Shown here in pieces: positions 1 to 12,019 of a stretch of DNA of 51,545 nucleotides; within the stretch, counting starts at the first letter, position 1, and every line of letters starts with the position of its first letter. The notes under the pieces are model-generated. The model had not been told where the DNA came from. It saw only the letters and a program-made list of their open reading frames with translations, and ran no database searches. Made by a program: the position numbers and the translations under genes. The stretch is from Candidatus Lumbricidiphila eiseniae (GTDB lineage: Bacteria > Actinomycetota > Actinomycetes > Actinomycetales > Microbacteriaceae): NCBI GenBank assembly GCA_002529645.1, contig NAEP01000025.1:1-51545 (forward strand), in the 5' to 3' direction.

Positions 1-616
1 GCCGAGAGGCATCCGTGAAGACATGCCCCTCACCACCGACCGCTCGAGCACCGTCAACATTGTCCGCCCGATTATCGATAAAGAGAAACTCTGCCGGGTT
101 GATACCAAGCTCGCGGATAACATGCTCGTAGATCGCGGGATCGGGCTTCACGAGGTGGAGCTCACCGCTAACAAAAACCCGCTCAAACAGGGCGGAAAAG
201 GTTCCGTGTCGGAGCCATCCTGAAAAATCAACGCCCGCGTTGGAAAGCAGCGCCAACCGGGTGCCGCCAGCCTTGAGAGCCTGTAATACGCGGAGGGTGT
301 CCGGGTTGAGGGAGAGCCAACTGCGGTGATCAAGAGCCCACATCTGGTCAATGTCGAGCGGATGCCAGCTCACCCCGATCTCATCGCCAACCCTCGCCCA
401 ATAGTCGGCGATTGACACGGTGCCGCGGTCCAGTTCTTCCCGGTGGTGCCAATAGGCCCGCCAGAACGCGGGGGTGTGCGCAGGCGTGATTCCAGCCCGC
501 TCGGTGAGCTGGAGCCGATCAGATTCCGGAGGGGAGTACGAGATCACCTCACCGTAGTCAAAGACAACAACGGCTGGAGCAAGCCGGAGCGGAGCGATCT
601 GATCGGCAGAATGCAC
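1..616 (-). CDS. HAD-superfamily hydrolase, partial (3' end outside window)
   Basis: The reverse strand is open from a GTG at 614-616 to the window edge, giving 205 residues and no stop, so the C-terminus is missing. The order of HAD motifs is visible: motif I VVVFDYGEV near residues 16-24, motif II LLSNAG in the middle, then a K-P-D-P motif III and FIDNRADNVDGA as motif IV. The second Asp of the usual DxD is Gly, as in subfamily IA members related to the phosphatase-like domain of epoxide hydrolases, so a phosphatase activity is not assured. An AGGTAGG ribosome site lies 7 bases before the GTG. It diverges from the next gene. The substrate cannot be told from the sequence. Confidence 0.85.
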   Translation of the reverse strand, partial: MHSADQIAPLRLAPAVVVFDYGEVISYSPPESDRLQLTERAGITPAHTPAFWRAYWHHREELDRGTVSIADYWARVGDEIGVSWHPLDIDQMWALDHRSWLSLNPDTLRVLQALKAGGTRLALLSNAGVDFSGWLRHGTFSALFERVFVSGELHLVKPDPAIYEHVIRELGINPAEFLFIDNRADNVDGARAVGGEGHVFTDASR

Positions 617-764
617 ACCGTCAAACCTACCTGAGTTTATGGCGAGAACGCGCCGAGCACCGTGGGAAAAAGAGTGCCCGATGATTCCTGATTACTCTGC
701 CAGGCCTGCCGGCATAGGCGGCCCGAATGACCGGTGCCCGGTCAGACTCAGGTATGGTCGAGGG

Positions 765-2039
765 ATGACCGAGGCCACGTTTGACGCGACCTCGGCGAGT
801 GGTTTCCGCCGGTTTCTTGCATCACGACAGGCTTTGTGGTGCGGCTTTACGATCATCCACCTGCTGCTCGCATCGCTCTGTTTTGCTGGACCGGGCAACC
901 CACTGGGCGATGTCACGGATGTTTATCGCAGTTGGGCGCTGCAAGCGCAGACCGGGCTCTCGCGAATGGGAATCGATACGCCCTGGGTGTACCCGATTCT
1001 TGCCTTTGCCCCGATGACGGTCGCGCTGCTGTTCGGTCCCGTTCTGTACGGCGCAACCTGGCTTGTGCTCGTCACCCTGCTGAACGGCATCGTCTTTTCT
1101 ATCCTGTTGGGATCAGGGTCGCTGTCGCGCCGACGCCGTATCGCCGCATGGTGGTGGATTCTCTTCCTCGTCCTGCTTGGCCCGGTTGCGCTCGGCCGTA
1201 TCGACACCGTCACCGTGCCGGTCGCGATTCTCGGACTGTTGTGGGCGGGAAGCCGCCCCCGGTTGGCGACGGCATTGCTCACCGTTGCGATGTGGATGAA
1301 AGTCTGGCCCGCAGCGGTTATTGCCGCCCTCGCTGTGAGTTCGCGGCGACGGCTCAACGTGTTCGTTGTGACAGCGTCGCTGAGCGCGGCCATCCTCGTC
1401 ATAAGCTTGCTTGCGGGTGCGGGGATGAATGCGATCGGGTTCGTGGCCGAACAGGCGGGGCGCGGGTTGCAGGTGGAATCGCCGTTCGCGATCTTCTGGT
1501 TGTGGCAGATCGTCGTGGGACATCAGGACGTCGGTGTTCGGTATTCGTTCGACATTCTCACCTTCCAACTGTGGGGGCCCGGCGTGGAAACAGCCGCGAC
1601 GCTCGCGACGCCGCTCATGGTCGTTCTCTCAGTGACCATCATCGGGCTGGGGATTCGCGCGACTCGGAGCGGGGCATCCTTTCTTGCGCTTTTTCCTCCG
1701 TTGGCACTGTGCCTGGTTGTCACCCTCATGCTGTCCAATAAGGTGGGGTCGCCGCAGTTTGTTTCATGGCTTGCGGCACCGATCATTCTCGGGCTGGTGG
1801 TGTCAACAAGGCGGTACCTCACCCCGGCGATTCTCACCGGCGGCATTGCGCTGTGTACCCAGGTGATCTACCCCTACTGGTACCGATGGCTGCTCTCAGC
1901 ACAGCCGGTGTTTGTGTTTGTGCTCACCCTCAAGATTGTGCTGCTGGTGGGCCTTCTGGGGTGGGGTATCGGGTCAGTGTGGCAGGCTGGAACCCGCGCT
2001 GCGGTTCGTCACCGAAACGCTCTCGCGCTCGTCAGTTAG
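765..2039 (+). CDS. Polytopic membrane protein, GT87/DUF2029-like mannosyltransferase candidate (paralogue 1)
   Basis: 424 residues starting at the ATG of MTEATF; a longer open frame back to 639 adds only a hydrophilic, low-quality extension. About ten membrane segments are visible, with the short charged loops and the WVYP, AMWMKVWP, ESPFAIFW and NKVGSPQFVSW blocks typical of polyprenyl-phosphate-sugar-dependent GT87-like glycosyltransferases of actinobacteria. Such enzymes add sugars to lipid or cell-wall acceptors on the outer face of the membrane. The same blocks, in the same order, occur in the gene at 9384-10691, so the two are clear paralogues. It is followed after 11 bases by the thiamine-binding gene. 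Sugar and acceptor are unknown, and family membership is inferred from motif pattern only. Confidence 0.75.
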   Translation: MTEATFDATSASGFRRFLASRQALWCGFTIIHLLLASLCFAGPGNPLGDVTDVYRSWALQAQTGLSRMGIDTPWVYPILAFAPMTVALLFGPVLYGATWLVLVTLLNGIVFSILLGSGSLSRRRRIAAWWWILFLVLLGPVALGRIDTVTVPVAILGLLWAGSRPRLATALLTVAMWMKVWPAAVIAALAVSSRRRLNVFVVTASLSAAILVISLLAGAGMNAIGFVAEQAGRGLQVESPFAIFWLWQIVVGHQDVGVRYSFDILTFQLWGPGVETAATLATPLMVVLSVTIIGLGIRATRSGASFLALFPPLALCLVVTLMLSNKVGSPQFVSWLAAPIILGLVVSTRRYLTPAILTGGIALCTQVIYPYWYRWLLSAQPVFVFVLTLKIVLLVGLLGWGIGSVWQAGTRAAVRHRNALALVS

Positions 2040-2050
2040 GGGAGGTCATT

Positions 2051-2374
2051 GTGCTCGTCGCGTTTTCTGTTGCGCCCAGCGGCACCGGTCGAGTGGATGG
2101 CTCCGTCTCCGACGCTGTTGCTGCGGCAGTGCGAGTTGTGCGGGAGTCGGGTCTGCCGCATCACACGGATGCGATGTTCACCACGATCGAGGGTGACTGG
2201 GATGCTGTCTTCGACGTGGTTCGCCGGGCCACAGACGCCGTCGCTGAGTTTGGATCGCGGGTATCGCTCGTGCTCAAGGCGGATATTCGGTCGGGATACA
2301 CGGGGGAACTTACCGGCAAAATGGAACGCCTGGAACGAGCGATTCTGGAACAGGCGAGCGACGAATCGGACTGA
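2051..2374 (+). CDS. MTH1187/YkoF-type thiamine-binding protein
   Basis: 107 residues from a GTG preceded by GGGGAGG. The whole protein matches the small ferredoxin-fold MTH1187 (DUF77) family: an initial strand LVAFSVAPSG, then VSDAVAAAVRVVRESGLPHHTDAMFTTIEG (given here as the family pattern in pieces: AVRVVRESGL, TDAMFTTIEG), and a final SLVLKADIRSG strand with an amphipathic helix ELTGKMERLERAIL. Members form tetramers and bind thiamine or hydroxymethylpyrimidine-like ligands; no catalytic role is established. It lies 11 bases after the GT87-like gene and is the last gene before the RiPP-like cluster. Its length fits the family. Confidence 0.85.
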   Translation: MLVAFSVAPSGTGRVDGSVSDAVAAAVRVVRESGLPHHTDAMFTTIEGDWDAVFDVVRRATDAVAEFGSRVSLVLKADIRSGYTGELTGKMERLERAILEQASDESD

Positions 2375-2795
2375 CAAGAACCTCGTCTGCGCAACTGCAG
2401 AGGCAGACTCGGGCCTGTGCTTGACGGACTGTCCCGGTGGCGGGACCGGATGTGATGGGGCTTCCCGCAACTTCAACGATGGCGGTCCCGGAACTACTGT
2501 TCCGCTTCCTCGTGCCATCTGCGGAAACCGGTTGGGCCTCGGATTCCAGAATCTTTTACGCATACGCGCGTCTGGCAATCGATACTGATCGGTAGTTACC
2601 AAGGGTAGGTGGCTCAATTTGATCGGTTATCTGGGTAGCGACGGGAGGGGGAGTCTCCGAGCTTGCCGAACCGATGAGACGATGCCGCCCGGTGACGGTA
2701 TCTGGCGATCCTGCGATAACTCTGGGAGTGAGTGATTGTTATCAGCGTTGGTCTCAGGAGCCAGGAATGTCAGAAAACTTATTTTGGATGATTGC
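2375..2795 (+). other. Gene-free stretch left of the peptide cluster
   Basis: About 420 bases without a credible gene. The open frames here (for example a reverse frame over 2036-2617) have no recognisable protein pattern and overlap the thiamine-binding gene. The right part becomes more AT-rich towards the promoter at 2796-2825, and this is the likely left border of the peptide cluster. Confidence 0.6.
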
Positions 2796-2825
2796 TTGAC
2801 TTCTTGAGAATTCTGTGATTATGCT
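2796..2825 (+). promoter_or_regulatory. Sigma70-like promoter of the peptide cluster
   Basis: TTGACT at 2796-2801 and TATGCT at 2820-2825 are separated by 18 bases, close to the housekeeping consensus and unusually good for this genome. Transcription would start near 2832, just ahead of the small open frame at 2858 and the three peptide genes. Confidence 0.65.
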
Positions 2826-2857
2826 TGGCGCAACGGTAGCACCGAGGAAGGGAACAT

Positions 2858-3076
2858 GTGTTGATGAGACGGCTGTTCGTCCCGGTGGACGCGGGAGGCG
2901 ATTTGCGTGCGGGAGCTTGTAGTGCTGGCGGGCTATTTCATGTCTTTTGCGGGTGTCCACCTTCGGCCTTCTGTTGGGAGTCTCATCCCCGGGAAAACTG
3001 TTGCTCGTTGAACTCTTCGGCGGAGTCCGTGCTCCGGTCTGAGGAGTTTTGGGATGAACGGGAGGAGGTGAGCTAG
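2858..3076 (+). CDS. Small Cys-rich open frame, possible diverged fourth precursor or leader ORF
   Basis: 72 codons from GTG 2858 (TTG 2861 and ATG 2864 are also in frame), with GAGGAAGGGAA upstream. It starts about 26 bases after the predicted transcript start and its stop codon directly abuts the ATG of peptide 1, so the two may be translationally coupled. Residues near the middle read DLRAGACSAGG and, a little later, FCGCP, which loosely resembles the LRSGA...C...G...CLCT layout of the three peptides. The remainder contains further Cys residues and an acidic tail but no known domain. It could be a decayed precursor, a leader ORF, or simply open by chance; coding status is uncertain. Confidence 0.35.
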   Translation: MLMRRLFVPVDAGGDLRAGACSAGGLFHVFCGCPPSAFCWESHPRENCCSLNSSAESVLRSEEFWDEREEVS

Positions 3077-3157
3077 ATGCAGAAGATTTCGGATGTTGCC
3101 CTGCGCTCAGGAGCGACGCTCCGCTGCGACAGAGGAGCGGGCTGTTTGTGCACCTGA
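3077..3157 (+). CDS. Candidate modified-peptide precursor 1 (26 aa)
   Basis: ATG start with GGAGGAGGTG seven to eight bases upstream; 26 codons ending TGA. The N-terminal part has K3-I4-x-D6 and L9-R10-S11-G12-A13; the C-terminal part has Cys17, then D-R-G-A-G, then C23-L24-C25-T26. The same framework recurs in the two next genes while third codon positions differ (LRSGA is CTG CGC TCA GGA GCG here), which shows selection on the peptide itself. I infer a leader of about 16 residues bound by the RRE of the downstream E1 enzyme and a Cys/Gly-rich core at the C-terminus. There is no signal peptide and no clear GG-type cleavage site. Confidence 0.8.
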   Translation: MQKISDVALRSGATLRCDRGAGCLCT

Positions 3158-3264
3158 GGCAGTAAGGGCGGTGATTATTAGAGTTCCGCCTCCTCTTGTT
3201 TTCTATGCGACCACGGTATTGCGTGTTCATGAGCTGTTACTAACTCCCAGAGGAGGTGGGGGAC

Positions 3265-3348
3265 GTGTGGAAAATCTCGGATTCTGTCCTACGATCGGGC
3301 GCGATGGTGGCGTGTAGCGGCTCAGGTGGAGGCTGTTTGTGCACCTGA
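3265..3348 (+). CDS. Candidate modified-peptide precursor 2 (27 aa)
   Basis: GTG start eight bases after AGGAGG, 27 codons. It keeps K3-I4-S5-D6, L9-R10-S11-G12-A13, Cys17, a S-G-S-G-G-G spacer and C24-L25-C26-T27. The last 17 bases before and including the stop are identical to precursor 1, but the LRSGA codons differ (CTA CGA TCG GGC GCG). The spacer between Cys17 and the CLC motif is one residue longer than in precursor 1. Spacing to precursor 1 is 107 bases, with no other gene between. Confidence 0.8.
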   Translation: MWKISDSVLRSGAMVACSGSGGGCLCT

Positions 3349-3370
3349 CGCGGTCGGACTTGCGGCGTCT

Positions 3371-3392
3371 CTGTGCTAGCCGATTAGCACAG
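3371..3392 (+). other. Short hairpin between precursors 2 and 3
   Basis: CTGTGCTA and TAGCACAG form an 8-bp perfect stem with a 6-base loop, 22 bases after the stop of precursor 2. No T-run follows, so it is more likely an mRNA-stability or processing element than a terminator. Confidence 0.4.
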
Positions 3393-3437
3393 TCAGCACC
3401 AGTAGCGTGTTCCAGTGATGTAGAGGAGGTGATGAGA

Positions 3438-3521
3438 TTGCGGAAGATTATGGATTGTCCACTCCGCTCCGGGGCTGCACTCGCTTGCAGCGGATCCGGC
3501 ACCGGTTGTCTTTGTACATAG
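3438..3521 (+). CDS. Candidate modified-peptide precursor 3 (27 aa)
   Basis: TTG start chosen because AGGAGG at 3424-3429 is eight bases away; the in-frame ATG at 3432 would sit only two bases from the ribosome site. The peptide keeps K3-I4-x-D6, L9-R10-S11-G12-A13, Cys17, S-G-S-G-T-G and C24-L25-C26-T27, and has one extra Cys at position 7. Its codons are the most diverged of the three (CTC CGC TCC GGG GCT for LRSGA; TGT CTT TGT ACA for CLCT), so conservation is at the protein level. It is the last peptide gene before the strong hairpin at 3549-3592. Confidence 0.8.
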   Translation: MRKIMDCPLRSGAALACSGSGTGCLCT

Positions 3522-3548
3522 ACCGTCGCTGTCTTTGTGCTTAGGTCG

Positions 3549-3592
3549 TTGGTGGGCTGGTGCCGAGTGCTTGCTCGGCACCAGCCCACCAA
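3549..3592 (+). terminator. Strong hairpin separating precursors from enzyme genes
   Basis: A 19-bp perfect stem (3549-3567 with 3574-3592) and a 6-base loop TGCTTG. No T-run follows, so full intrinsic termination is unlikely. Its place after the last peptide gene suggests partial read-through or mRNA stabilisation, giving more precursor than enzyme, as is common in RiPP operons. Confidence 0.7.
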
Positions 3593-3700
3593 ACAGTCTG
3601 CGCCCAGCCTCTGATGTCGGGCTTTGTGCCTGCATCTTCTTTCCGACCTGTGTAAGAACCACCTCGAAAGCACCGCAATAATAAGGAGGCCTGGAAGGCT

Positions 3701-4633
3701 GTGCGACTCCCGCTCTTCAATCTCTTCGAGTACCCAAAACACCCCCAGCTCTACGATGCGCTGCGAGCAGCCGGACCTGAGCGAGCTTGGACACTGATGT
3801 CGGACCTCGACAGACTGTTTTCCCCGATTTACCAAGAAGAAGTAAAGGAGTTCACTGCCACAACTCGCGCAAAGGTGATCAAGTTCATGAACATGGTCCC
3901 CGCTCTCTCAGGTGCCGACAAGTCCTCCTATGCCGATCAAGCCGCCGGGTACGGCCCGAAGTTGATGTTCGAGTCGACTTTCATTACTCTGTGGCTCGAT
4001 AACCCCGGGTTGTTATTCAAGGAAGTCGTGGAAGTCGTAGGCGCTGAGGAGCTTCGTGCTGCTCAGGAATTGGGACACGGTGTGCTTGCGTTGCCACTGC
4101 ATCTTGGCCCTTCGTACACCATCGGCCCCTTGATCTCCCACAGTATGCCAACTCGGCTTGTTTTCAATCGAATGAACTTCGATGAGATTAAACAGGCGGC
4201 GTTTCCAAACCTGCCCATTGAGGGCTTTCAGCTTGGTAGTGTGTCTGCATTCCGCGCTGGTCTCGCGGCAATGCGCTCAGGGATGGCGTTCTCAATCTTC
4301 CCGGAACTTGATCCACGTGGTGTTGATGCTCACCATGTGCCGGTCGAGTTCCTTGGGGTGCGCATTTTTGCCCCGTTGGGACCTGTCATCATGAGTCAGG
4401 CCGCACAAGCGCCGATGGTGCCGGTAGTGTTGTCTTCTCTCGGCGGTGGCAAATTTCGGCTCGTTTACCACCCGATGATTGAAGCCCCAAGCAAGGGTGC
4501 GTCGCCGACAGACGCACTTGTGCGGCTCTGGGCGATCATCGAATCAGAACTGATTACTGGGCAGACCGGTGAGTGGGAAATGTGGCATGAATTCGATCGG
4601 ATGCTGCCAAGCAGCGAGGAGGATCTGGCGTGA
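3701..4633 (+). CDS. LpxL/HtrB-type (LPLAT superfamily) acyltransferase homologue
   Basis: 310 residues from a GTG, with AAGGAGG eleven bases upstream. The core resembles lipid A/PIM-type acyltransferases: ALPLHLGPSY near 130-139 stands at the HX4(D/E) site, FNRM near 155-158 at motif II, and GMAFSIFPELDPRG near 194-207 with the conserved Pro-Glu of motif III, followed by APMVPVVLSS. The acidic residue expected four positions after His134 is Tyr139, so either catalysis differs or the protein binds rather than transfers acyl groups. No membrane helix is obvious. Its stop overlaps the next gene (GTGA), so it belongs to the peptide operon. An N- or side-chain acylation of the peptide is my inference; lipid-acceptor activity is the alternative. 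Confidence 0.75.
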   Translation: MRLPLFNLFEYPKHPQLYDALRAAGPERAWTLMSDLDRLFSPIYQEEVKEFTATTRAKVIKFMNMVPALSGADKSSYADQAAGYGPKLMFESTFITLWLDNPGLLFKEVVEVVGAEELRAAQELGHGVLALPLHLGPSYTIGPLISHSMPTRLVFNRMNFDEIKQAAFPNLPIEGFQLGSVSAFRAGLAAMRSGMAFSIFPELDPRGVDAHHVPVEFLGVRIFAPLGPVIMSQAAQAPMVPVVLSSLGGGKFRLVYHPMIEAPSKGASPTDALVRLWAIIESELITGQTGEWEMWHEFDRMLPSSEEDLA

Positions 4634-5409
4634 TTGAGGGTACTCCGGTCGTCGAGATTTCAGATCTGCGACGAACATACTTGGGCCCAGGCGGAGAATC
4701 TACTCACGCTCTGTCGGGCGTGGATCTTTCCGTGTACGCTGGCGAGCTTCTTGCAATCGTGGGACCATCCGGCTCTGGCAAGTCGACCCTGCTCCAATTG
4801 ATTGGTTGTCTGGATTCACCTACCTCAGGGAGCATTTTCCTCAGGGGACGGGATGTTGGGAGCCTCCAAGAGAAGGAGAAAGTCATCTTTCGACGAGATC
4901 ATATCGGCTTCGTATTCCAAGCTTTCTATCTTGTGCCCAGCATGACGGTGTTGGAAAATGTGGCGCTCTCGTCAATCATTCGGGATGAGAGCGCAGTGCA
5001 GTGGCGATCTGGTGCACTGGAACTGCTGCAACGGCTGGGTCTAGAAGGAACTGCTGAGCGGTTTCCGCATCAGCTGTCTGGTGGACAGAAACAGCGTGTG
5101 GCGGTAGCGAGGGCTCTGTTTAGTAAACCTGAGATTCTCCTTGCGGATGAGCCCACAGGCAATCTTGACGCAGCTAACAGTGATGCTGTTTTACAATTGA
5201 TCCGCTCAGCGGTTAATCGCGACACCGGTGCTGCGGGTGTTCTGGTTACTCACGATTTCCATGCTGCAAGCTTCGCGGATCGGGTCATAGCCGTTCACGA
5301 CGGGAAACTGGTTGACGAGCTTATTCTTGCGCGTGAAGCCCTCGGTGTCGGAGGTGACAGTGAGCATGTTGAACGCGTTCGTACGTGGATGGCGTCAGTT
5401 TCGCTTTGA
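4630..5409 (+). CDS. ABC exporter ATPase, LolD/MacB type
   Basis: 259 residues; GTG start overlapping the acyltransferase stop by four bases. Walker A GPSGSGKS at 45-52, Q-loop FVFQAF (Gln97), signature LSGGQ at 149-153, Walker B LLADEP and the H-loop VTHD are all intact, so it should be an active ATPase. The type pairs with FtsX/MacB-fold permeases, and such a permease follows with a 44-base overlap. The C-terminus is about 25 residues longer than most LolD proteins. It has no peptidase C39 domain, so any leader cleavage must come from elsewhere. Likely role: export of, or self-protection against, the cluster's peptide product. Confidence 0.93.
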   Translation: MIEGTPVVEISDLRRTYLGPGGESTHALSGVDLSVYAGELLAIVGPSGSGKSTLLQLIGCLDSPTSGSIFLRGRDVGSLQEKEKVIFRRDHIGFVFQAFYLVPSMTVLENVALSSIIRDESAVQWRSGALELLQRLGLEGTAERFPHQLSGGQKQRVAVARALFSKPEILLADEPTGNLDAANSDAVLQLIRSAVNRDTGAAGVLVTHDFHAASFADRVIAVHDGKLVDELILAREALGVGGDSEHVERVRTWMASVSL

Positions 5410-7840
5410 CTACCGTAAGTACCTCGCAGCTGGGATCGCGCTTGTCTTCGGCGTGGCTCTGCTTTTTGGAACGCTTGTCACATCGCAGAGCATTGGAGCT
5501 CAGCTCTCGGACAGGGTCAGCTCCTTTGGAGGTATCGGGGATCTTGGGCTTGTCCCGACCGTTGACGGACCCACGATCACGATGATGGATGTGGCAACCG
5601 TTGCGGCGTTACCGGGCGTCTCAACCGTTATCCCTACATTCAGTAAACAGACAGTTGCACGTTCGCATAAAAATGGAAGCGAAAGGCAGGTGGTGGTTAC
5701 CGGTTATCCGAGTGAGTGGAATTCGTCTCTGAGCGGTTTGTACGTTGACGGACGACTTCCGGATTCTGCGACACTTGAGGTGGCTCTTCCAACTGACGTG
5801 GCGAAAGGTCTGCGCGTGGTTCCAGGGGATGTGATCGATGTTGCGGGCACACAAGGGAGGGTTCGGTTTGATGTCGTTGGGCAGTTTGATCCCGGCCGAC
5901 TTGGTGCCTTGGCATATGACAATATCTTCGTTGATATTTCCACAGCACAGAGAATGTTCGGTGCCGAGAACCAAATCTCCCGCATAGATATTCAGCTGGC
6001 GGACACCTACACCGCAAACGGTTGGCAGGCTAAATTTGGTGACCAACTGCCAACAGGGATGCGTGTGCAGGACACTTCCGCAGTGTCGTCATCGTTCGCG
6101 CCGCTACTTTCTGCGATTACTCTCGTGCTTACGCTTGCCTCTTTGGTGACTCTCGTCATTGCCGCGTTGCTCGCTGCGATTGCTTTCGAAGGAATCGTGC
6201 AATCCCGGCGAGAGACCTATGGTGCTTTGCGAGCCCTCGGAGCGAGTGCCGGTTGGATAGCGAAGTCCGTGTTGATTGAGGCTGCCGTACTCGGTGTGCT
6301 CGGTTCCGTGCTTGGAGTTGGCGCAGGCTTTGCTGTCAGCCGGGGTCTCAACGTATTACTTGCCTCCGGCGGCACTCTCCCGGAGAGCGTTTCTGAGTTT
6401 CACTGGTGGCAGGTTGTTATAGGCCTACTCGTTGGTTTTTTAGCGAGCCTGCTCGGCTCGGCTCGGGCAGTCCGGCGAGTTATTACTCAGGTGCCCACCG
6501 TCACACTCACCGATTTCGCCGTGACGGTGAGACCTCGAGTCCATCTTGGAACCATTCTCGGACTTGCTCTACTCGGCGTTGGACTCGCTGCGTGCTTTGC
6601 GGATCCGCTTATGGCAAAGCTCGCAGGTGTACTAGCACTGTTGGCCAGCACCGCAGTGCTCACAGGACCAACCTTAACCGTGCTGGTGCGGCCGCTTAGT
6701 TTTATTCACTGGCCGGGAAGAGTGTCAGCTCAGCGGATCCGTCGTGTGCAGACGCTCGGCCCAACCACCGCGATGACTGCCGTCGTCGTCTGCCTGAGTA
6801 CAGCGTTAGTCGGGGGAGTGACGGCTATTAGTTCTGCAATGCAAGAGCAGCTGGGCCGACAGTTCGGGGCTGATATCCAGGTGTCCTCGCCTGTTCCTCT
6901 TTCCGATGATCTCTCACAGCGCATTAAGAGCACGTCGGGTGTGGCCACCACCTCGAGTACCGTGTGGGGACTGGCGGAATTTACTGGTGGAGGTCTGACT
7001 AGCCAGGTCGGATTCCTCGCCGTTGATCCAACCAGTTACTTTGACACAGCTCAACTCCCATGGCGCACCGGCAGTGATCGGACGACACCTGACCAGTTTC
7101 GAGTCGGCAACACCGTAATCTTGCCCGTCTCGGTGGTCGAGAGCCGGGGATTGAAAATCGGTGACACCGTGAGCATTAGCCGCGCTGGGCAGAAAAGAAT
7201 GCTGGAGATCATCGGAACATTCGCATCACTCTCGACCGGCAATCAGATTATCATCGACCGCGAAGCTGCCGCATTCCTCGGAGTGACTGGATCAAATGGG
7301 TGGAACGTAACTGCCGATCCTGGTATTGATGTTATCGATCTTCGCAATCTTATTGCCGGCAAACTCGATGATGTTCCCGGTGTTTCCGTTATCACGTCCG
7401 CACAGATGAAGCAGCGGGCCGAATCAGAACTGGGAACCTACACAAGCGCAGTATTCGCGGTGGTCGTTCTCGCTTTGTTGCTTGGGGCTATCGGAACTGC
7501 GGGCGTATTCGGACTGAGCGTGCAGCAGCGTCGTCGCGAAATTGGTGTCTATAGGACGATAGGTGCCAGTCGGCGGGATATTCGTAGTCTGGTTCGTTGG
7601 GAAGCGATCCTCATCGGAATTGCTGCCTCCATCCTCGGACTCCTCGTTGGACAGGCCGCCAGCATTCTACTTACGCAGATCATTGCTGCTTCCCTGGGAG
7701 TAACGCTTGCGGTTGCATTCTCTCCACTCGGACTCGTGGCGATCGTTGGCCTAGCGGTGACTTCGCTGGTCGTTGCTGCACTCGCGCCGAGCCGTCGCGC
7801 TAGTCGAATCGATCCAGTCGCAGCGCTCAGGGCGGAATGA
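5366..7840 (+). CDS. FtsX/MacB-family ABC permease
   Basis: 824 residues from ATG 5366; a GTG six bases earlier (5360) is in frame and also possible. Layout is that of large actinobacterial permeases: one N-terminal membrane helix (about 15-35), an extracytoplasmic MacB-PCD domain, a three-helix FtsX bundle (about 250-400), two further central helices, a second periplasmic-type domain, and a final FtsX bundle ending in a PSRRASRIDPVAALR motif. It overlaps the ATPase gene by 44 bases and the E1 gene by four (ATGA), which implies coupled translation. In Gram-positives this fold exports or extrudes peptides, antibiotics or lipoproteins; here the peptide product is the natural candidate. Confidence 0.9.
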   Translation: MLNAFVRGWRQFRFDYRKYLAAGIALVFGVALLFGTLVTSQSIGAQLSDRVSSFGGIGDLGLVPTVDGPTITMMDVATVAALPGVSTVIPTFSKQTVARSHKNGSERQVVVTGYPSEWNSSLSGLYVDGRLPDSATLEVALPTDVAKGLRVVPGDVIDVAGTQGRVRFDVVGQFDPGRLGALAYDNIFVDISTAQRMFGAENQISRIDIQLADTYTANGWQAKFGDQLPTGMRVQDTSAVSSSFAPLLSAITLVLTLASLVTLVIAALLAAIAFEGIVQSRRETYGALRALGASAGWIAKSVLIEAAVLGVLGSVLGVGAGFAVSRGLNVLLASGGTLPESVSEFHWWQVVIGLLVGFLASLLGSARAVRRVITQVPTVTLTDFAVTVRPRVHLGTILGLALLGVGLAACFADPLMAKLAGVLALLASTAVLTGPTLTVLVRPLSFIHWPGRVSAQRIRRVQTLGPTTAMTAVVVCLSTALVGGVTAISSAMQEQLGRQFGADIQVSSPVPLSDDLSQRIKSTSGVATTSSTVWGLAEFTGGGLTSQVGFLAVDPTSYFDTAQLPWRTGSDRTTPDQFRVGNTVILPVSVVESRGLKIGDTVSISRAGQKRMLEIIGTFASLSTGNQIIIDREAAAFLGVTGSNGWNVTADPGIDVIDLRNLIAGKLDDVPGVSVITSAQMKQRAESELGTYTSAVFAVVVLALLLGAIGTAGVFGLSVQQRRREIGVYRTIGASRRDIRSLVRWEAILIGIAASILGLLVGQAASILLTQIIAASLGVTLAVAFSPLGLVAIVGLAVTSLVVAALAPSRRASRIDPVAALRAE

Positions 7841-8940
7841 TGCTGAACGGTTCCCAGAAAGCGCTCCGCCCTCGAATTCGGGACAGCGTTCTCGTCTTCT
7901 CACGGGGGGACATTTTGCAGTTCTTCTGCACGATGGAACTCCGTGTGAAAGAATTTAACGTCCCCGATTTCGTAACCGAGCTCATACCCCTACTGGATGG
8001 CACTCGGACTGTTGCGGAGTTGGAATTCGCGATGCAGAGCTCCCACGGATACTCTTCAGAGGTACTGGCTGACGTTCTCGGAGTGCTGAGTGAAGAGCGC
8101 CTACTCGATCGAGCTGTGCCTTCCTCCATCACGAGCCACCGCTTCACCCGTCAGGAGCAACTGTTCGAAGAGTTTATCGCCTCCTATCCGCAACTGCCTG
8201 ACTCACCCCAGGTTCTGCAAGATCGCCTGGCACAGGCCCGGGTTGTGATCGTGGGAATGGGCGGCGCTGGAAGCTGGGTGTTGCAACCGCTTGTCGCTGC
8301 TGGTGTCGGGCGATTCGATATCCTCGACCCGGACGTGGTAGACGTAACAAACCTGAACCGCCAAGTTCTCTTCACCGAAGCGGATCTTGGAAAATCGAAA
8401 GTTAATGCCGCTGCAGGAAAAGCGTTGATGATCAATACCGCCGTTCAGATTAAAGCTCACCGTCAACGTGTGGAGTCACCGGACGACCTCAGCACAGCAC
8501 TCAGCAGTGCGGATCTGATCGTCAACTGTGCGGATGAGCCGAGCGTTGTTGCCGCGTCAGACACTGTGGCAGCTGCCGCCCAGCGCGCCGGTGTGGCTCA
8601 CCTTGTTGGGGGTGCCTACGGGGGAAACCTCGGGGTCTTGGGGATTAGCGTCATACCTGGACAAACTGTGTGTTGGGAATGTGTTCGTGCCGAGACAGTC
8701 AATGACCATGGCCGAGCAGAAATGGTAGCTCTGAAAGGGCGAACGCGCAGCGGCGGGAGCCTCGCTCCGGTGTCAGGCATTGTTGGGAATTTCATTGCCT
8801 GGGAAGCGCTGAGGATTCTACTAGGCCTCCCACTCGGATTGTCAAACCAAGTACGGGAGCTGGATATTATGACGCTCGAATGGCGTGTCCGGCCGGTATC
8901 CGCGCGTCCGAGTTGCACTAACTGTTCACACCTCGCGTAG
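7837..8940 (+). CDS. RRE-E1 (ThiF/MccB-like) peptide-adenylating enzyme candidate
   Basis: 367 residues; ATG overlaps the permease stop. Residues about 14-92 look like a winged-helix RiPP recognition element (strands VLVFSRG and VKEFNV, then LIPLLDGTRTVAEL). Residues 136-355 are an E1/ThiF fold: GMGGAG at 140-145, the LDPDVVDVTNLNRQ segment with Arg175, Lys186/Lys188, and NCADEP at 230-235. Two CxxC pairs (279/282 and 360/363) should bind zinc. I see no separate ubiquitin-like partner or catalytic Cys domain, as in MccB and PaaA, which adenylate a peptide carboxylate. It therefore probably binds the precursor leaders and activates the C-terminal Thr or a side-chain carboxylate. The chemistry that follows is unknown. 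Confidence 0.85.
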   Translation: MMLNGSQKALRPRIRDSVLVFSRGDILQFFCTMELRVKEFNVPDFVTELIPLLDGTRTVAELEFAMQSSHGYSSEVLADVLGVLSEERLLDRAVPSSITSHRFTRQEQLFEEFIASYPQLPDSPQVLQDRLAQARVVIVGMGGAGSWVLQPLVAAGVGRFDILDPDVVDVTNLNRQVLFTEADLGKSKVNAAAGKALMINTAVQIKAHRQRVESPDDLSTALSSADLIVNCADEPSVVAASDTVAAAAQRAGVAHLVGGAYGGNLGVLGISVIPGQTVCWECVRAETVNDHGRAEMVALKGRTRSGGSLAPVSGIVGNFIAWEALRILLGLPLGLSNQVRELDIMTLEWRVRPVSARPSCTNCSHLA

Positions 8941-9383
8941 CTGAGATTGCACTACAGCTGACGGTCACGCTTCGGATTGATCGGGTTCATGCCTTACGTA
9001 ATTGTGTGATGGACCAAGGGCGGGTGGCGACCCGAAGGACGACATGACAAGCTGCCGTTCCTGTCTGCCCTCCAGTCTTTGGTGAGTCTCGCTCAGCGTT
9101 TGGAAGTACGCACGCGCTAGTCTTTGGTGTCGGGTTGTCGTTCGGTCTCGCTCAGCGGCTTGCTGGTCGGCTTCCCACGTCGCTTTTCGACGAGAAGCAG
9201 GATCACACGGCAACATAGAACCAGAGAAACCACCAGAGTGCTGCACCTCCGACTAGAATCCGCTGCAAATATCCACGGCGTTGCACCGCATCACCCGTTG
9301 CGAAACGTGCACAGACTCCTCTTCAGCTGTGATGAGCTCCACGTTTGCTGTTTTCAAAACGCCCCCGACGTACGGAGAGATCG
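8941..9383 (+). other. Gene-free stretch right of the peptide cluster
   Basis: About 440 bases with no convincing gene. A reverse frame at 8965-9246 is open but has no recognisable pattern. Two imperfect copies of a GTCTTTGGTG...GTCTCGCTCAGCG pattern lie at about 9074-9097 and 9120-9157. This looks like a scar or border of the cluster. Confidence 0.5.
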
Positions 9384-10691
9384 ATGACCACAGCGGTTTC
9401 ACCGCGCGCAATTCTGAGCAACCGATCCGTTGTGTGGGGTGCATTCCTGCTTGTGCACGTGTACCTGTGCTGGGTCAACATCGCGTGCCCACAGGGATCC
9501 ATGAATGATCCCACTATGGTGTACAAGCAGTGGGTTGATCAGAGCCTCATCGGCAGTGGCCACCGGGTGGGTATCGACATCGCATGGGTGTATCCCGCAC
9601 TCGCGTTCATTCCGATGGTGCTCACGCGATTCTTTTCCGATGCCCTCATTGGGCAATCCTGGCTCGTCATGGTCACGGCGCTGGACGCGATTGTCATGTA
9701 CGCGCTCACTCGCCGCAGTTCACTCAGGTCCTCGTCGGCCATCCCGGTCGGACGCTGCATGGCGTGCTGGTGGTGGCTCGTGTTCCTCGTGCTTCTCGGT
9801 CCGATTTCACTCGCAAGACTCGACGCGATCTCGGCTGCTCTGGGTATTCTCGGGCTGTTGTGGGCGGTTCGGCGCCCGGTCGTTGCCGGGGTTATCACCG
9901 CTATCGCGATGTGGATCAAAGTGTGGCCGGTGGGGCTTGTTATCGTCATGTTTGTCACCCTGCGTCGCACACGGAGTCTTGTGCTGTCGGCTGTGTCTAT
10001 CGTGTCTTCGGGAGTCATTTTGGTCTGCCTGTCACTGGGGTCAGGGCTGAAAGTATTTGGTTTCCTGACCCAACAGACCGGTCGGGGCATCCAGCTGGAA
10101 TCGCCGTTCGCGCTCATATGGTTGGGGCAAAGGATCCTCGGCGTGCCGGGGATCTCCGTAGATTACTCGCTGGAACAGCTCACCTATGAGATTAACGGAC
10201 CCGGTGCCGATACGGTCGTTGCGATGAGCACCCTGGCCCTAGTGCTCGGAATTATTGCCGTTACCATTATTGCGAGCTGGGCGGTGGCACGGGGCGCTGG
10301 GTTCACCGCCGTGGCGCCACCGTTTGCGCTCGGAATGGTGACGGTGCTTATGCTCGGGAACAAGGTGGGGTCGCCGCAGTTTGTGAGTTGGCTCTCGGTG
10401 CCGATTGTGTTCGGTCTGGTCCTGTGGCGTCTCGAATTCCACATTCCCGCGCTGATTACCCTCGAAATCGCGCTTGTGACCCAACTGATCTACCCCACGT
10501 GGTACGACCAGTTGATCAGTGTCGCCCCGTTCATGGTGATCCTTCTCGCCCTCAAGACAGCGGGAATTGTGGCACTTTTCGTCTGGTCGGTACGGGCACT
10601 TCTGCGGGTCGAACGCACCCAGATCCGTCGCACTGCGGTTGCCGTGGGCGGCACGGTGCCTGAATCGGCGGCGCTGAGTCGTGCCGGATAG
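9384..10691 (+). CDS. Polytopic membrane protein, GT87/DUF2029-like mannosyltransferase candidate (paralogue 2)
   Basis: 435 residues from ATG 9384 with GGAGA upstream. It shares with the gene at 765-2039 the blocks WVYP, a WWW..FLVLLGP helix, AMWIKVWP, GRGIQLESPFA and GNKVGSPQFVSW, in the same order and spacing, so both come from one duplication. About ten membrane helices are visible. Probable role is transfer of a sugar from a polyprenyl-phosphate donor to an outer-face acceptor. The MFS gene follows after 35 bases and may be cotranscribed. The peptide cluster and the thiamine-binding gene sit between the two paralogues. Confidence 0.75.
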   Translation: MTTAVSPRAILSNRSVVWGAFLLVHVYLCWVNIACPQGSMNDPTMVYKQWVDQSLIGSGHRVGIDIAWVYPALAFIPMVLTRFFSDALIGQSWLVMVTALDAIVMYALTRRSSLRSSSAIPVGRCMACWWWLVFLVLLGPISLARLDAISAALGILGLLWAVRRPVVAGVITAIAMWIKVWPVGLVIVMFVTLRRTRSLVLSAVSIVSSGVILVCLSLGSGLKVFGFLTQQTGRGIQLESPFALIWLGQRILGVPGISVDYSLEQLTYEINGPGADTVVAMSTLALVLGIIAVTIIASWAVARGAGFTAVAPPFALGMVTVLMLGNKVGSPQFVSWLSVPIVFGLVLWRLEFHIPALITLEIALVTQLIYPTWYDQLISVAPFMVILLALKTAGIVALFVWSVRALLRVERTQIRRTAVAVGGTVPESAALSRAG

Positions 10692-10726
10692 TCACATCCC
10701 TTCGGGAACCGTGGCAGAATCGACCG

Positions 10727-12019
10727 GTGACTGCCGACCTGAATGTTCCGATACTGAGCAGCCCGGGCTCGGTTCTTAGTCCGAACCGTGTGCGGCTCGC
10801 TCTCGCCGCGCTCATGCTGGGTGGTTTTGCGATTGGGTGCACCGAATTCGTCGCGATGGGGTTGTTGCCGAATATCGCCGCGGATCTGCTCCCGGGACTG
10901 TATGCGCATTCTCCCGCAGCCGCGAACGCGAGTACGGGATGGATGATCACCGCCTACGCGGCGGGTGTTGTGGTTGGAGCACCGACGATTGCCGCGCTCG
11001 CGGCATCCTGGCCCCGCAAGCGTCTCTTGCTCACGCTGCTGTGCGCTTTTGTGGTGGGAACACTCGCGTCGGCGGCACTGCCGAGCGTCGGGTGGGTCAT
11101 CTGCGCCCGGTTTGCGGCGGGTCTGCCGCACGGCGCGTACTTCGGCATCGCCACCCTCGTTGCGGGGAGTTTGCTCGGCCCGAGCAAGCGAGGCCGTGGC
11201 ATTGCCATTGTCATTTCGGGACTGTCGGTAGCGAATATCGTGGGTGTGCCGGTCATCACGTGGCTGGGTCAAATTGCGGGATGGCGCGTGGCCTATCTTG
11301 TTGTTGCGGCGTTGTTTGCGGCGACATTTGTTGCGGTGTGGTGGGCGGTGCCGTGGCAACCGGGTGATGCGGGCGCAACCGCCCGGCGTGAGTTGGCCGC
11401 GTTTGGCCGAGGACAGGTGTGGTTTACGATTGCGACCGTTACGTTCGGCTTCGGCGGATTCTTCGCGGTGTACTCGTATGTCGCGCCGATGGCCACCGAC
11501 GTGTCCGGCCTTCCCGCGGGTGCGGTGCCGTTTGTTTTGATGACGTTCGGCATCGGGATGACGCTCGGTAATATCATCGGCGGTCGCCTGGTGGATTGGA
11601 GTGTGCGCCGTACGCTGTACATTTTCTTTCCCGCGCTTATCGTGTCCTTTGTTCTGTTCGCACTGACCGCACGATACCCGGTGGGGCTGTTCGGTGGATT
11701 TTTCCTTATTGCGATGACAGCATCGGTGCTGAGCCCTGTTATGCAGGCTCGACTCATGGACACTGCACACGAGAGTAAGGCGATTGCGGCATCCCTCAAC
11801 CACTCGGCGTTCAATATTTCCAATAGCCTCGGAGCAATGGCCGGGGGATACGTTATTGCTACCGGCCAGGGGTACATCGCACCGATCTGGGTGGGTGCGG
11901 GGCTCACCGTAATCGGCCTGATACTGGCGGTTCTTTCGTTTGGGTTGGACCGCCGGTGGATTCGCCGTGGTATCCATGTGCCGTATGCGACGGGCGCGAT
12001 CTCGACCGTTGACGTATAG
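10727..12019 (+). CDS. MFS exporter, DHA1 (AraJ/Cml-like)
   Basis: 430 residues from a GTG; twelve hydrophobic segments. The first helix reads GGFAIGCTEFVAMGLLPNIA, the hallmark of the AraJ/chloramphenicol-exporter branch of the DHA1 family, and the loop between helices 2 and 3 has the basic WPRKR motif A remnant. Such proteins are proton-driven exporters of sugars or drugs across the inner membrane. It follows the GT87-like gene by 35 bases and converges with metX. The substrate is unknown; a link to the peptide cluster cannot be excluded but there is an unrelated gene between. Confidence 0.88.
   Translation: MTADLNVPILSSPGSVLSPNRVRLALAALMLGGFAIGCTEFVAMGLLPNIAADLLPGLYAHSPAAANASTGWMITAYAAGVVVGAPTIAALAASWPRKRLLLTLLCAFVVGTLASAALPSVGWVICARFAAGLPHGAYFGIATLVAGSLLGPSKRGRGIAIVISGLSVANIVGVPVITWLGQIAGWRVAYLVVAALFAATFVAVWWAVPWQPGDAGATARRELAAFGRGQVWFTIATVTFGFGGFFAVYSYVAPMATDVSGLPAGAVPFVLMTFGIGMTLGNIIGGRLVDWSVRRTLYIFFPALIVSFVLFALTARYPVGLFGGFFLIAMTASVLSPVMQARLMDTAHESKAIAASLNHSAFNISNSLGAMAGGYVIATGQGYIAPIWVGAGLTVIGLILAVLSFGLDRRWIRRGIHVPYATGAISTVDV

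What the first reader, a model, noticed from the sequence alone, without database searches (positions are those of the whole stretch)
2796..8940. Candidate new RiPP-type cluster: three tandem CLCT peptides, LPLAT acyltransferase, MacB-type exporter and RRE-E1 enzyme
Seen: a promoter, three homologous 26-27-codon genes, a strong hairpin, then four genes coupled by overlaps (GTGA, 44 bases, ATGA). Known: RRE-E1 fusions such as PaaA and MccB-like E1 enzymes adenylate precursor peptides. Inferred: the E1 binds the K-I-x-D/LRSGA leader and activates a carboxylate, after which a Cys thiol or another group attacks (thioester/thiolactone, amide or similar), the acyltransferase may lipidate the product, and the ABC pair exports it. 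There is no YcaO, LanM/LanB, radical SAM, lasso cyclase or protease gene. I know of no described class with this set.
Basis: partly seen in the sequence, partly recalled or inferred. Interest (0 to 1): 0.93.

Follow-up and report, generated by a model that had tools for sequence, protein, structure and literature searches.

The report
Lipidated thiolactone peptide gene cluster
A bacterium carries three tiny peptide genes beside genes for an E1-like enzyme, an acyltransferase-family enzyme and an ABC transporter, a set that recurs in other genera and is predicted to make a new kind of cyclic, lipid-tagged peptide.

Summary
Window 3077-3521 holds three genes for 26-27-residue peptides, then a 20-bp hairpin and four overlapping genes: PF03279 acyltransferase-family protein (LPLAT), LolD/MacB-type ATPase, FtsX permease, RRE-E1 enzyme. 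The same set lies in 8 more genomes. All 9 loci carry 1-3 peptide genes; 13 of 13 copies read start-x15-C-x(3-6)-C-[LM]-C-T-stop, and strict controls give 0. Three of these loci were found after the rule was set.

E1 resembles MccB/PaaA and keeps the adenylation residues. Two E1 relatives without LPLAT have upstream ORFs with the same leader but Cys-free cores starting with Ser. So the leader seems to track E1, the CxCT tail LPLAT plus ABC pair.

Best model (all chemistry inferred): E1 adenylates the C-terminal Thr, Cys17 closes a macrothiolactone, LPLAT adds an acyl chain, the ABC pair exports it. A ring closed in the tail is the main rival.

ThiF-like RiPP enzymes (MccB, PaaA, GrcB, EnfB, IndF) are known. 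My open-access searches found no paper pairing one with an LPLAT, so I call it a new variant of a known kind. No product is known.

The parts
2796..2825 (+). promoter-like site (TTGACT, 18 nt, TATGCT)
   Evidence: 9 of 12 matches, 0.3 expected by shuffling; consensus only
3077..3157 (+). precursor peptide gene 1: MQKISDVALRSGATLRCDRGAGCLCT (26 aa)
3265..3348 (+). precursor peptide gene 2, GTG start: MWKISDSVLRSGAMVACSGSGGGCLCT (27 aa)
   Evidence: start chosen by ribosome-site spacing (8 nt)
3438..3521 (+). precursor peptide gene 3, TTG start: MRKIMDCPLRSGAALACSGSGTGCLCT (27 aa)
   Evidence: start chosen by ribosome-site spacing (8 nt)
3549..3592 (+). 20-bp hairpin between last precursor and LPLAT gene, no T-run; likely attenuator or mRNA-stabilising element
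   Evidence: z -6.6 for 3522-3640; stems at the same place in 6 of 6 other loci folded, of 8 others
3701..4633 (+). LPLAT (PF03279), 310 aa, predicted acyltransferase with PatA/LpxM-like fold; H134 and E202 match the PatA dyad, Y139 stands at the HX4D acid
4630..5409 (+). ABC ATPase, LolD/MacB type, 259 aa
5366..7840 (+). FtsX-type permease, 824 aa, two FtsX domains
7837..8940 (+). RRE-E1 (ThiF/MccB-like), 367 aa; residues about 18-86 RRE-like in the model, 124-361 ThiF domain

Best explanation
Three short peptide genes, an MccB-like E1 gene, a gene for an acyltransferase-family (PF03279) protein and an ABC-transporter gene pair form one conserved cluster that is predicted to make an acylated C-terminal peptide macrothiolactone. 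Shown: gene set, order, peptide pattern, family membership and conserved catalytic residues; the folds are predictions. Inferred: the RRE of an E1 monomer binds the 16-residue leader; the E1 adenylates the C-terminal Thr carboxylate with ATP; the thiol of Cys17, which the fixed leader length holds at a constant place, attacks it and closes an 8- to 11-residue thiolactone ring. The LPLAT then likely moves a fatty acyl group from CoA or ACP to the peptide, perhaps to a Cys of the C-[LM]-C-T tail, and the LolD/FtsX pair likely lifts the lipopeptide out of the membrane. A protease outside the cluster would have to remove the leader, possibly after G12-A13. Step odds: RiPP cluster 0.95; C-terminal adenylation 0.85; intramolecular thioester 0.58; Cys17 as the nucleophile 0.33; acylation by the LPLAT 0.65; export 0.8.
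For: Peptide rule 13 of 13 copies in 9 of 9 loci, strict controls 0. L059, L062 and L063 were found by E1 after the rule was tabulated and fit it. Among the seven loci compared (L059, L062, L063 not included), flanking ORFs match only between the Arthrobacter loci; between genera only the peptides and the four genes are shared. E1: best solved relatives by profile are MccB (E 7.5e-41), then ThiF, MoeB and PaaA; with the single sequence MoeB and MccB tie. Foldseek rows 1-24 are MccB, row 25 PaaA; model pLDDT 90 with a beta-beta-beta-alpha-alpha-alpha N-terminus. R175, K188 and D233 are invariant in the 25-row alignment, with the 13- and 45-residue spacing of EnfB R167/K180/D225 as given in PMC12250964. 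Residue 17 is Cys in 13 of 13 CxCT peptides; in the candidate ORFs of the two relatives without LPLAT a Ser stands at the same distance after G-A. LPLAT: PatA and LpxM are all 14 fold matches with E <= 0.001 (best 1.9e-11); H134 in 22 of 23 and E202 in 23 of 23 rows align with the His and an acidic residue of PatA-type rows, matching the H126/E200 dyad of PMC4792965 (passages). A divergent locus, L075, again joins short peptides, E1 and a PF03279 protein, now with an MFS transporter.
Against: No product, mass or assay exists. GrcB and IndF make rings of 4-5 residues; a ring from Cys17 would be 8-11. The fixed C-x-C-T spacing suits a tail ring equally well, and a penultimate Cys is what the CxCT peptides share with 5 of 8 more distant loci. 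In L039 the ribosome site favours the first Met, so its leader may be 22 residues, not 16. No protease gene is in the window operon. The acyl acceptor is unknown; the GSCA peptides of L075 end in Ala, so Thr OH cannot be the general acceptor. The FtsX pair could be immunity rather than export. G12 is Glu in one copy (L047). The PF03279 score of the window LPLAT is barely over cut-off (23.1 against 22.3 bits).
Confidence: 0.33

Rival explanations
1. Same cluster and same C-terminal adenylation, but the ring would close in the tail: the Cys four from the end (C-[LM]-C-T, a 4-residue thiolactone) or the penultimate Cys attacks, and Cys17 pairs by disulfide or is acylated.
For: C-x-C-T spacing fixed in 13 of 13 while the loop after Cys17 varies from 3 to 6 residues. 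IndF closes W6 to I9, a 4-residue ring (PMC12150305). A penultimate Cys recurs in 5 of the 8 distant RRE-E1 loci with a convincing upstream peptide (L064, L067, L071, L072, L073).
Against: Two E1 relatives have no tail Cys but a Ser at the position of Cys17; L065, L066 and L074 lack a penultimate Cys. A fixed leader length is not needed for a tail ring.
Confidence: 0.27
2. The E1 does not cyclise: the activated C-terminus would be joined to another molecule (a nucleotide as in microcin C, an amine, or a lipid head group in an Atg8-like conjugation) and the LPLAT then acylates that group.
For: E1 is closest in fold to MccB. EnfB can amidate its activated peptide (PMC12250964). An E1 next to an LPLAT fits lipid conjugation (inference).
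Against: The C-terminal residue is Thr, not the Asn modified by MccB; three conserved Cys would be unexplained.
Confidence: 0.15
3. The peptides are not macrocycles: the C-x(3-6)-C-x-C cluster would bind a metal, or E1 would make a C-terminal thiocarboxylate, and the system is an acylated metallophore or sulfur donor.
For: Three closely spaced Cys; ThiF/MoeB are relatives.
Against: The window operon has no sulfurtransferase, desulfurase or metal-import gene and one search found no further shared gene between genera.
Confidence: 0.1
4. The short ORFs are chance or regulatory leader ORFs and the operon does something else.
For: They lie in a 5' region with a hairpin, as leader ORFs do.
Against: 13 of 13 copies in five lineages keep the pattern, strict controls 0; codon position 3 varies most; the one locus without them has a deleted E1.
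Confidence: 0.02

Closest known systems
Microcin C / MccB (and PaaA, pantocin A)
   Same: RRE fused to a ThiF-fold adenylating domain; top fold relatives, top sequence relatives with ThiF and MoeB
   Different: About 20% identity in the fold match; precursors end in Thr not Asn and have three Cys; LPLAT and LolD/FtsX genes beside it
GRC RiPPs (GrcA/GrcB, thiolactone)
   Same: RRE-ThiF enzyme that makes a Glu-Cys thiolactone with ATP (review PMC12250964, section read)
   Different: GRC has two radical SAM enzymes and a separate RRE, in streptococci; here none among the four genes, and an LPLAT. GrcB was not compared by sequence
Ind (IndA/IndF, indolylamide) and enterofaecin (EnfA/EnfB, imide)
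   Same: Small clusters: short precursor, RRE-ThiF enzyme, transporter; C-terminal carboxylate activated (PMC12150305 parts 1-2 of 3, PMC12250964 section)
   Different: Cores NWYFI and W[W]IVI instead of Cys-rich; Ind has an M16 protease; no acyltransferase named. PMC12150305 notes that the exact structure of enterofaecin needs more NMR
PatA / LpxM acyltransferases (PF03279)
   Same: Predicted fold and His/Glu dyad
   Different: 13-19% identity in the fold matches; Tyr139 at the HX4D acid; own sequence family in a peptide cluster
Autoinducing peptides (AgrD/AgrB)
   Same: Would be a ribosomal peptide thiolactone at the C-terminus (AIP thiolactones named in PMC12250964)
   Different: Would be made by an ATP-using E1, not by AgrB; no sensor kinase among the four genes

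Membership tests
RiPP pathway with RRE-ThiF (ThiF-like adenylyltransferase) enzyme | RRE domain fused to ThiF domain | tested here: met
   Model with N-terminal three strands and three helices, then ThiF fold, Foldseek to MccB over about 360 columns; ThiF in 25 of 25 rows, PaaA-like_N and PqqD in 1 of 25 each; the window row itself has no Pfam RRE hit
RiPP pathway with RRE-ThiF (ThiF-like adenylyltransferase) enzyme | complete ATP-adenylation residues | tested here: met
   R175, K188, D233 invariant in the 25-row alignment
RiPP pathway with RRE-ThiF (ThiF-like adenylyltransferase) enzyme | linked precursor gene with conserved leader and variable core | tested here: met
   13 of 13 copies in 9 of 9 loci; loop of 3-6 residues varies
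RiPP pathway with RRE-ThiF (ThiF-like adenylyltransferase) enzyme | modified peptide product | not testable with these tools
   needs mass spectrometry
Microcin C | precursor ending in Asn that receives a nucleotide | tested here: not met
   13 of 13 end in Thr
GRC RiPP | two radical SAM genes, stand-alone RRE and Glu/Cys core | tested here: not met
   none among the four window genes; one search found no further gene shared between genera; core Glu in 1 of 11 distinct peptides
Enterofaecin / Ind | aromatic WWIVI or NWYFI core | tested here: not met
   no Trp, Tyr or Phe after G12-A13 in any peptide
Lanthipeptide, YcaO, lasso, radical-SAM RiPPs | class enzyme in the cluster | tested here: not met
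   none among the four window genes; genes further away in the window were not all searched
PF03279 acyltransferase | family score over cut-off and His/acid dyad | tested here: met
   23.1 bits against 22.3, marginal; H134 22 of 23, E202 23 of 23; predicted fold
PF03279 acyltransferase | acyl transfer activity | not testable with these tools
   needs assay

The most novel reading that the evidence does not exclude
A RiPP class in which a ubiquitin-E1-like enzyme and a lipid-A-type acyltransferase work together on a tri-cysteine peptide, giving fatty-acylated macrothiolactones: a ribosomal, E1-made counterpart of autoinducing peptides and lipopeptide antibiotics, within a larger actinobacterial set of RRE-E1 peptides with swappable cores (CxCT, SASIS, SNSHGN, GSCA, LCG).
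Probability: 0.38. Interest if true: 0.87.

Novelty: new variant of a known kind. Interest (0 to 1): 0.74.

Why it matters
ThiF-like RiPP enzymes already described make quite different bonds (phosphoramidate, pantocin bicycle, thiolactone, imide, indolylamide). This set adds a conserved acyltransferase-family partner and a Cys-rich core, is compact (four genes plus peptide genes of 81-84 nt in the window), and has Cys-free candidate relatives with the same leader, so ring site, acylation site and leader rules can be tested by simple swaps. If right, it links bacterial E1 chemistry to peptide lipidation.

Tried and rejected
Rejected: chance short ORFs. Microcin C member (Thr, not Asn). Plasmid or phage carriage as a rule: LPLAT has no match in the plasmid collection; E1 has one, the 11.9-Mb Nonomuraea replicon L039; 7 phage records match parts of E1, none over 80% of it, though the PHROG of unknown function phrog_19840 matches residues 44-361. 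Rfam: no family in 1-12000. PADLOC: only generic ABC, LolE-like and E1-E2 matches.

First thought, dropped: the lost HX4D acid made the LPLAT look inactive. In PatA the working acid is E200, and D131A keeps 37% activity (PMC4792965, passages); E202 is kept here.

Limits. The E1 protein search scored only the 7998 best candidates and the LPLAT one 7999. The genome-contig scan gave 4 loci. Rates: E1 at E<=1e-50 in 1 of 396 genomes of the order, 4 of 206 of the Hiyo8 genus, one of them the decayed L048, 2 of 398 of the family, 3 of 16 of that second genus; (396 genomes of the phylum, cut-off 1e-30, 189 matched) only the own genome and G171 passed 1e-50. LPLAT in 2 of 395 of the family of L005: both are loci already known (L005, L007), so LPLAT without E1 was not tested independently. 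Most of the 32 other close E1 proteins lie on contigs that I did not fetch. The nine loci are five lineages: three Arthrobacter are syntenic, three of genus g377 nearly identical. L005 has broken LPLAT and permease frames in the record. The permease of L059, L062 and L063 matches the window one only in its C-terminal part but has an 879-codon open frame in each. E1 tree (39 rows): the 8 CxCT loci included (L062 left out) fall in a 22-row group (92/93, below the starred level), apart from the group of SASIS and SNSHGN (99/98). A1 used 24 of 32 other close E1s; A2 20 of 23 other LPLAT hits plus 2 loci; the PatA comparison 3 of 4 fetched rows (L056 dropped by my motif filter). Hairpins were folded in 7 of 9 loci; z is not significant in L006 (-1.1, 24 of 200 shuffles as good) and weak in L059 (-1.9). 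Peptides were picked among other ORFs by ribosome site and likeness; 4 of 12 loci gave no convincing one (L010, L068, L069, L070), and L065 and L066 end without Cys. The 55 control loci include E1 relatives and some overlapping stretches. ORF picking was heuristic.

Papers: PMC12250964 (abstract, passages, sections 14, 17, 20), PMC12150305 (parts 1 and 2 of 3; its supplement, with other ThiF clusters, not seen), PMC12710340, PMC7470986, PMC4792965 (passages only). The not-found claim rests on searches in the open-access library (listings only).


Full report
OBSERVATION. Three peptide genes lie at 3077-3157, 3265-3348 and 3438-3521, each 8 nt after AGGAGG. A 20-bp hairpin follows at 3549-3592, then LPLAT 3701-4633, ATPase 4630-5409, permease 5366-7840 and E1 7837-8940, overlapping by 4, 44 and 4 bases. 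A weak promoter-like site lies at 2796-2825. GC falls from about 0.60-0.62 upstream to about 0.55-0.58 over the cluster, and none of the 10 same-genus genomes listed has the E1 at the cut-off, which fits horizontal gain (inference).

SAME CLUSTER ELSEWHERE. E1 has 32 other close relatives (E <= 1.3e-63), after which scores drop to 4e-26. Scans with an E1 alignment gave loci in Arthrobacter Hiyo8 (L005), Cellulomonas telluris (L006) and Rothia halotolerans (L007), two more of the Hiyo8 genus (L046, L047) and three of a second genus of the window's own family (L059, L062, L063). All carry LPLAT, ATPase, permease and E1 in the same order; in L005 the LPLAT and permease frames are broken in the record. 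With the window that is 9 loci in five lineages.

PEPTIDES. A six-frame scan for C-x-C-T-stop finds 13 hits in these 9 loci, all just upstream of LPLAT. All 13 have a start codon exactly 16 codons before a Cys that is followed by 3-6 residues and C-[LM]-C-T; 11 of the 13 sequences are distinct. The same scan finds 0 hits in 55 other loci (269 kb) and 0 in the rest of the window; 2000 Markov copies of the region give 10 loose and 0 full-pattern hits. L059, L062 and L063 were found after the rule was tabulated. A tenth locus, L048, keeps LPLAT, ATPase and permease, but E1 has lost about residues 226-292 and the 440 bases before LPLAT, which begin at the contig end, hold no such peptide and in part read like a transposase (my reading, no family search). 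What lies beyond the contig end is unknown.

LEADER AND CORE. Two E1 relatives without LPLAT or CxCT nearby, in Virgisporangium (L008) and Nonomuraea (L039), have directly upstream the ORFs MIKVSEESMLVGATLA-SASIS (9841-9906) and (MDRPPV)MVKVEEVPLRVGAVTA-SNSHGN (9837-9923). G-A, the following three residues and then a Ser stand where the CxCT peptides have G12-A13, three residues and Cys17. In L008 the count from the start is also 16; in L039 it is 16 only from the second Met, and the ribosome site favours the first. So the leader seems to go with the E1, and the C-x-C-T tail with LPLAT plus ABC pair. This is the main ground for taking residue 17 as the nucleophile; with two loci it is suggestive, not proof.

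ENZYMES. E1 model: pLDDT 90. Foldseek ranks MccB first (E 3.6e-23), then PaaA, ThiF and MoeB; by profile MccB leads before ThiF, MoeB and PaaA, by single sequence MoeB and MccB tie. R175, K188 and D233 are invariant; C279, C282 and C360 are invariant and C363 nearly so, as for a structural zinc site (recalled). LPLAT: PF03279 just over cut-off, model pLDDT 94, PatA and LpxM as all 14 fold matches with E <= 0.001. H134 is kept in 22 of 23 rows, E202 and Y139 in 23 of 23. In a profile alignment with three PatA-type proteins (probability 97), H134 meets the His of HxGN[WF][DE], Y139 its acid and E202 an acidic position. PMC4792965 reports H126 and E200 as essential and D131A as 37% active (passages), so the LPLAT is probably active. 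ATPase and permease are of LolD/MacB and FtsX types.

HAIRPIN. A stem lies between the last peptide gene and LPLAT in 7 of 7 loci folded (window, L047, L006, L007, L059, L005, L046; L062 and L063 not folded), with different sequence between genera. z-scores run from -6.6 to -1.1; in the GC-rich L006 it is not above chance. It likely keeps peptide mRNA in excess over enzyme mRNA (inference).

WIDER SET. In one family (175 genomes, 12 with a match at 1e-55), other short peptides lie before distant E1s; 8 of the 12 loci examined gave a convincing one. L075 has two 19-mers ending GSCA, then E1 (33% identity), a PF03279 protein (54 bits) and an MFS transporter: a second, divergent pairing of E1 with an LPLAT. 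Others end LCG, LCS, VCG, PCT or ICDS, and two end without Cys (L065, L066). The E1 of L065 is followed by a protein with a sub-threshold M50 peptidase match (L077).

MECHANISM. Shown: genes, order, peptide rule, family membership, catalytic residues; folds are predictions. Inferred: leader binding, adenylation of Thr, thioester with Cys17, acylation, export, leader removal. The chief rival closes the ring in the tail.

KNOWN OR NEW. ThiF-like RiPP enzymes are an established kind. In the searches made I saw no paper that combines a ThiF-like RiPP enzyme with a lysophospholipid acyltransferase (0 occurrences of that term in the 20 of 25 papers listed), and none holds both CMCT and RiPP. The supplement of PMC12150305 shows other ThiF clusters and was not seen, so this family may be in it.

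Noticed in passing
L075 (G1732), peptides, E1, LPLAT, MFS: Divergent cluster: two tandem 19-residue peptides ending GSCA, RRE-E1, PF03279 protein, MFS transporter
   Followed up: partly
L067, L072, L073 upstream of E1: 39-residue peptides with a K-V-V-V-R-K-L-E-[KR]-L-E-T-T leader and a GCRN..C[GS] end before distant RRE-E1 genes; L065 and L066 have a similar leader and no Cys
   Followed up: partly
L008 9841-9906 and L039 9837-9923: Cys-free precursor candidates (SASIS, SNSHGN) with the same leader; the L008 E1 is followed by a glycosyltransferase (EryCIII-like)
   Followed up: partly
window 639-2039 and 9345-10691: Two GT87-like genes flank the cluster (the second below the Pfam cut-off), as if it had been inserted between them
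   Followed up: no
L048 1-5500: Decayed copy of the cluster: transposase-like stretch before LPLAT and an internal E1 deletion
   Followed up: yes
window 7837-8940: E1 residues 44-361 match phrog_19840, a phage protein family of unknown function (E 1e-37): phages may carry RRE-E1 enzymes
   Followed up: no
window 2826-3076: About 250 nt without an assigned gene between the promoter-like site and the first peptide gene, no Rfam match
   Followed up: partly
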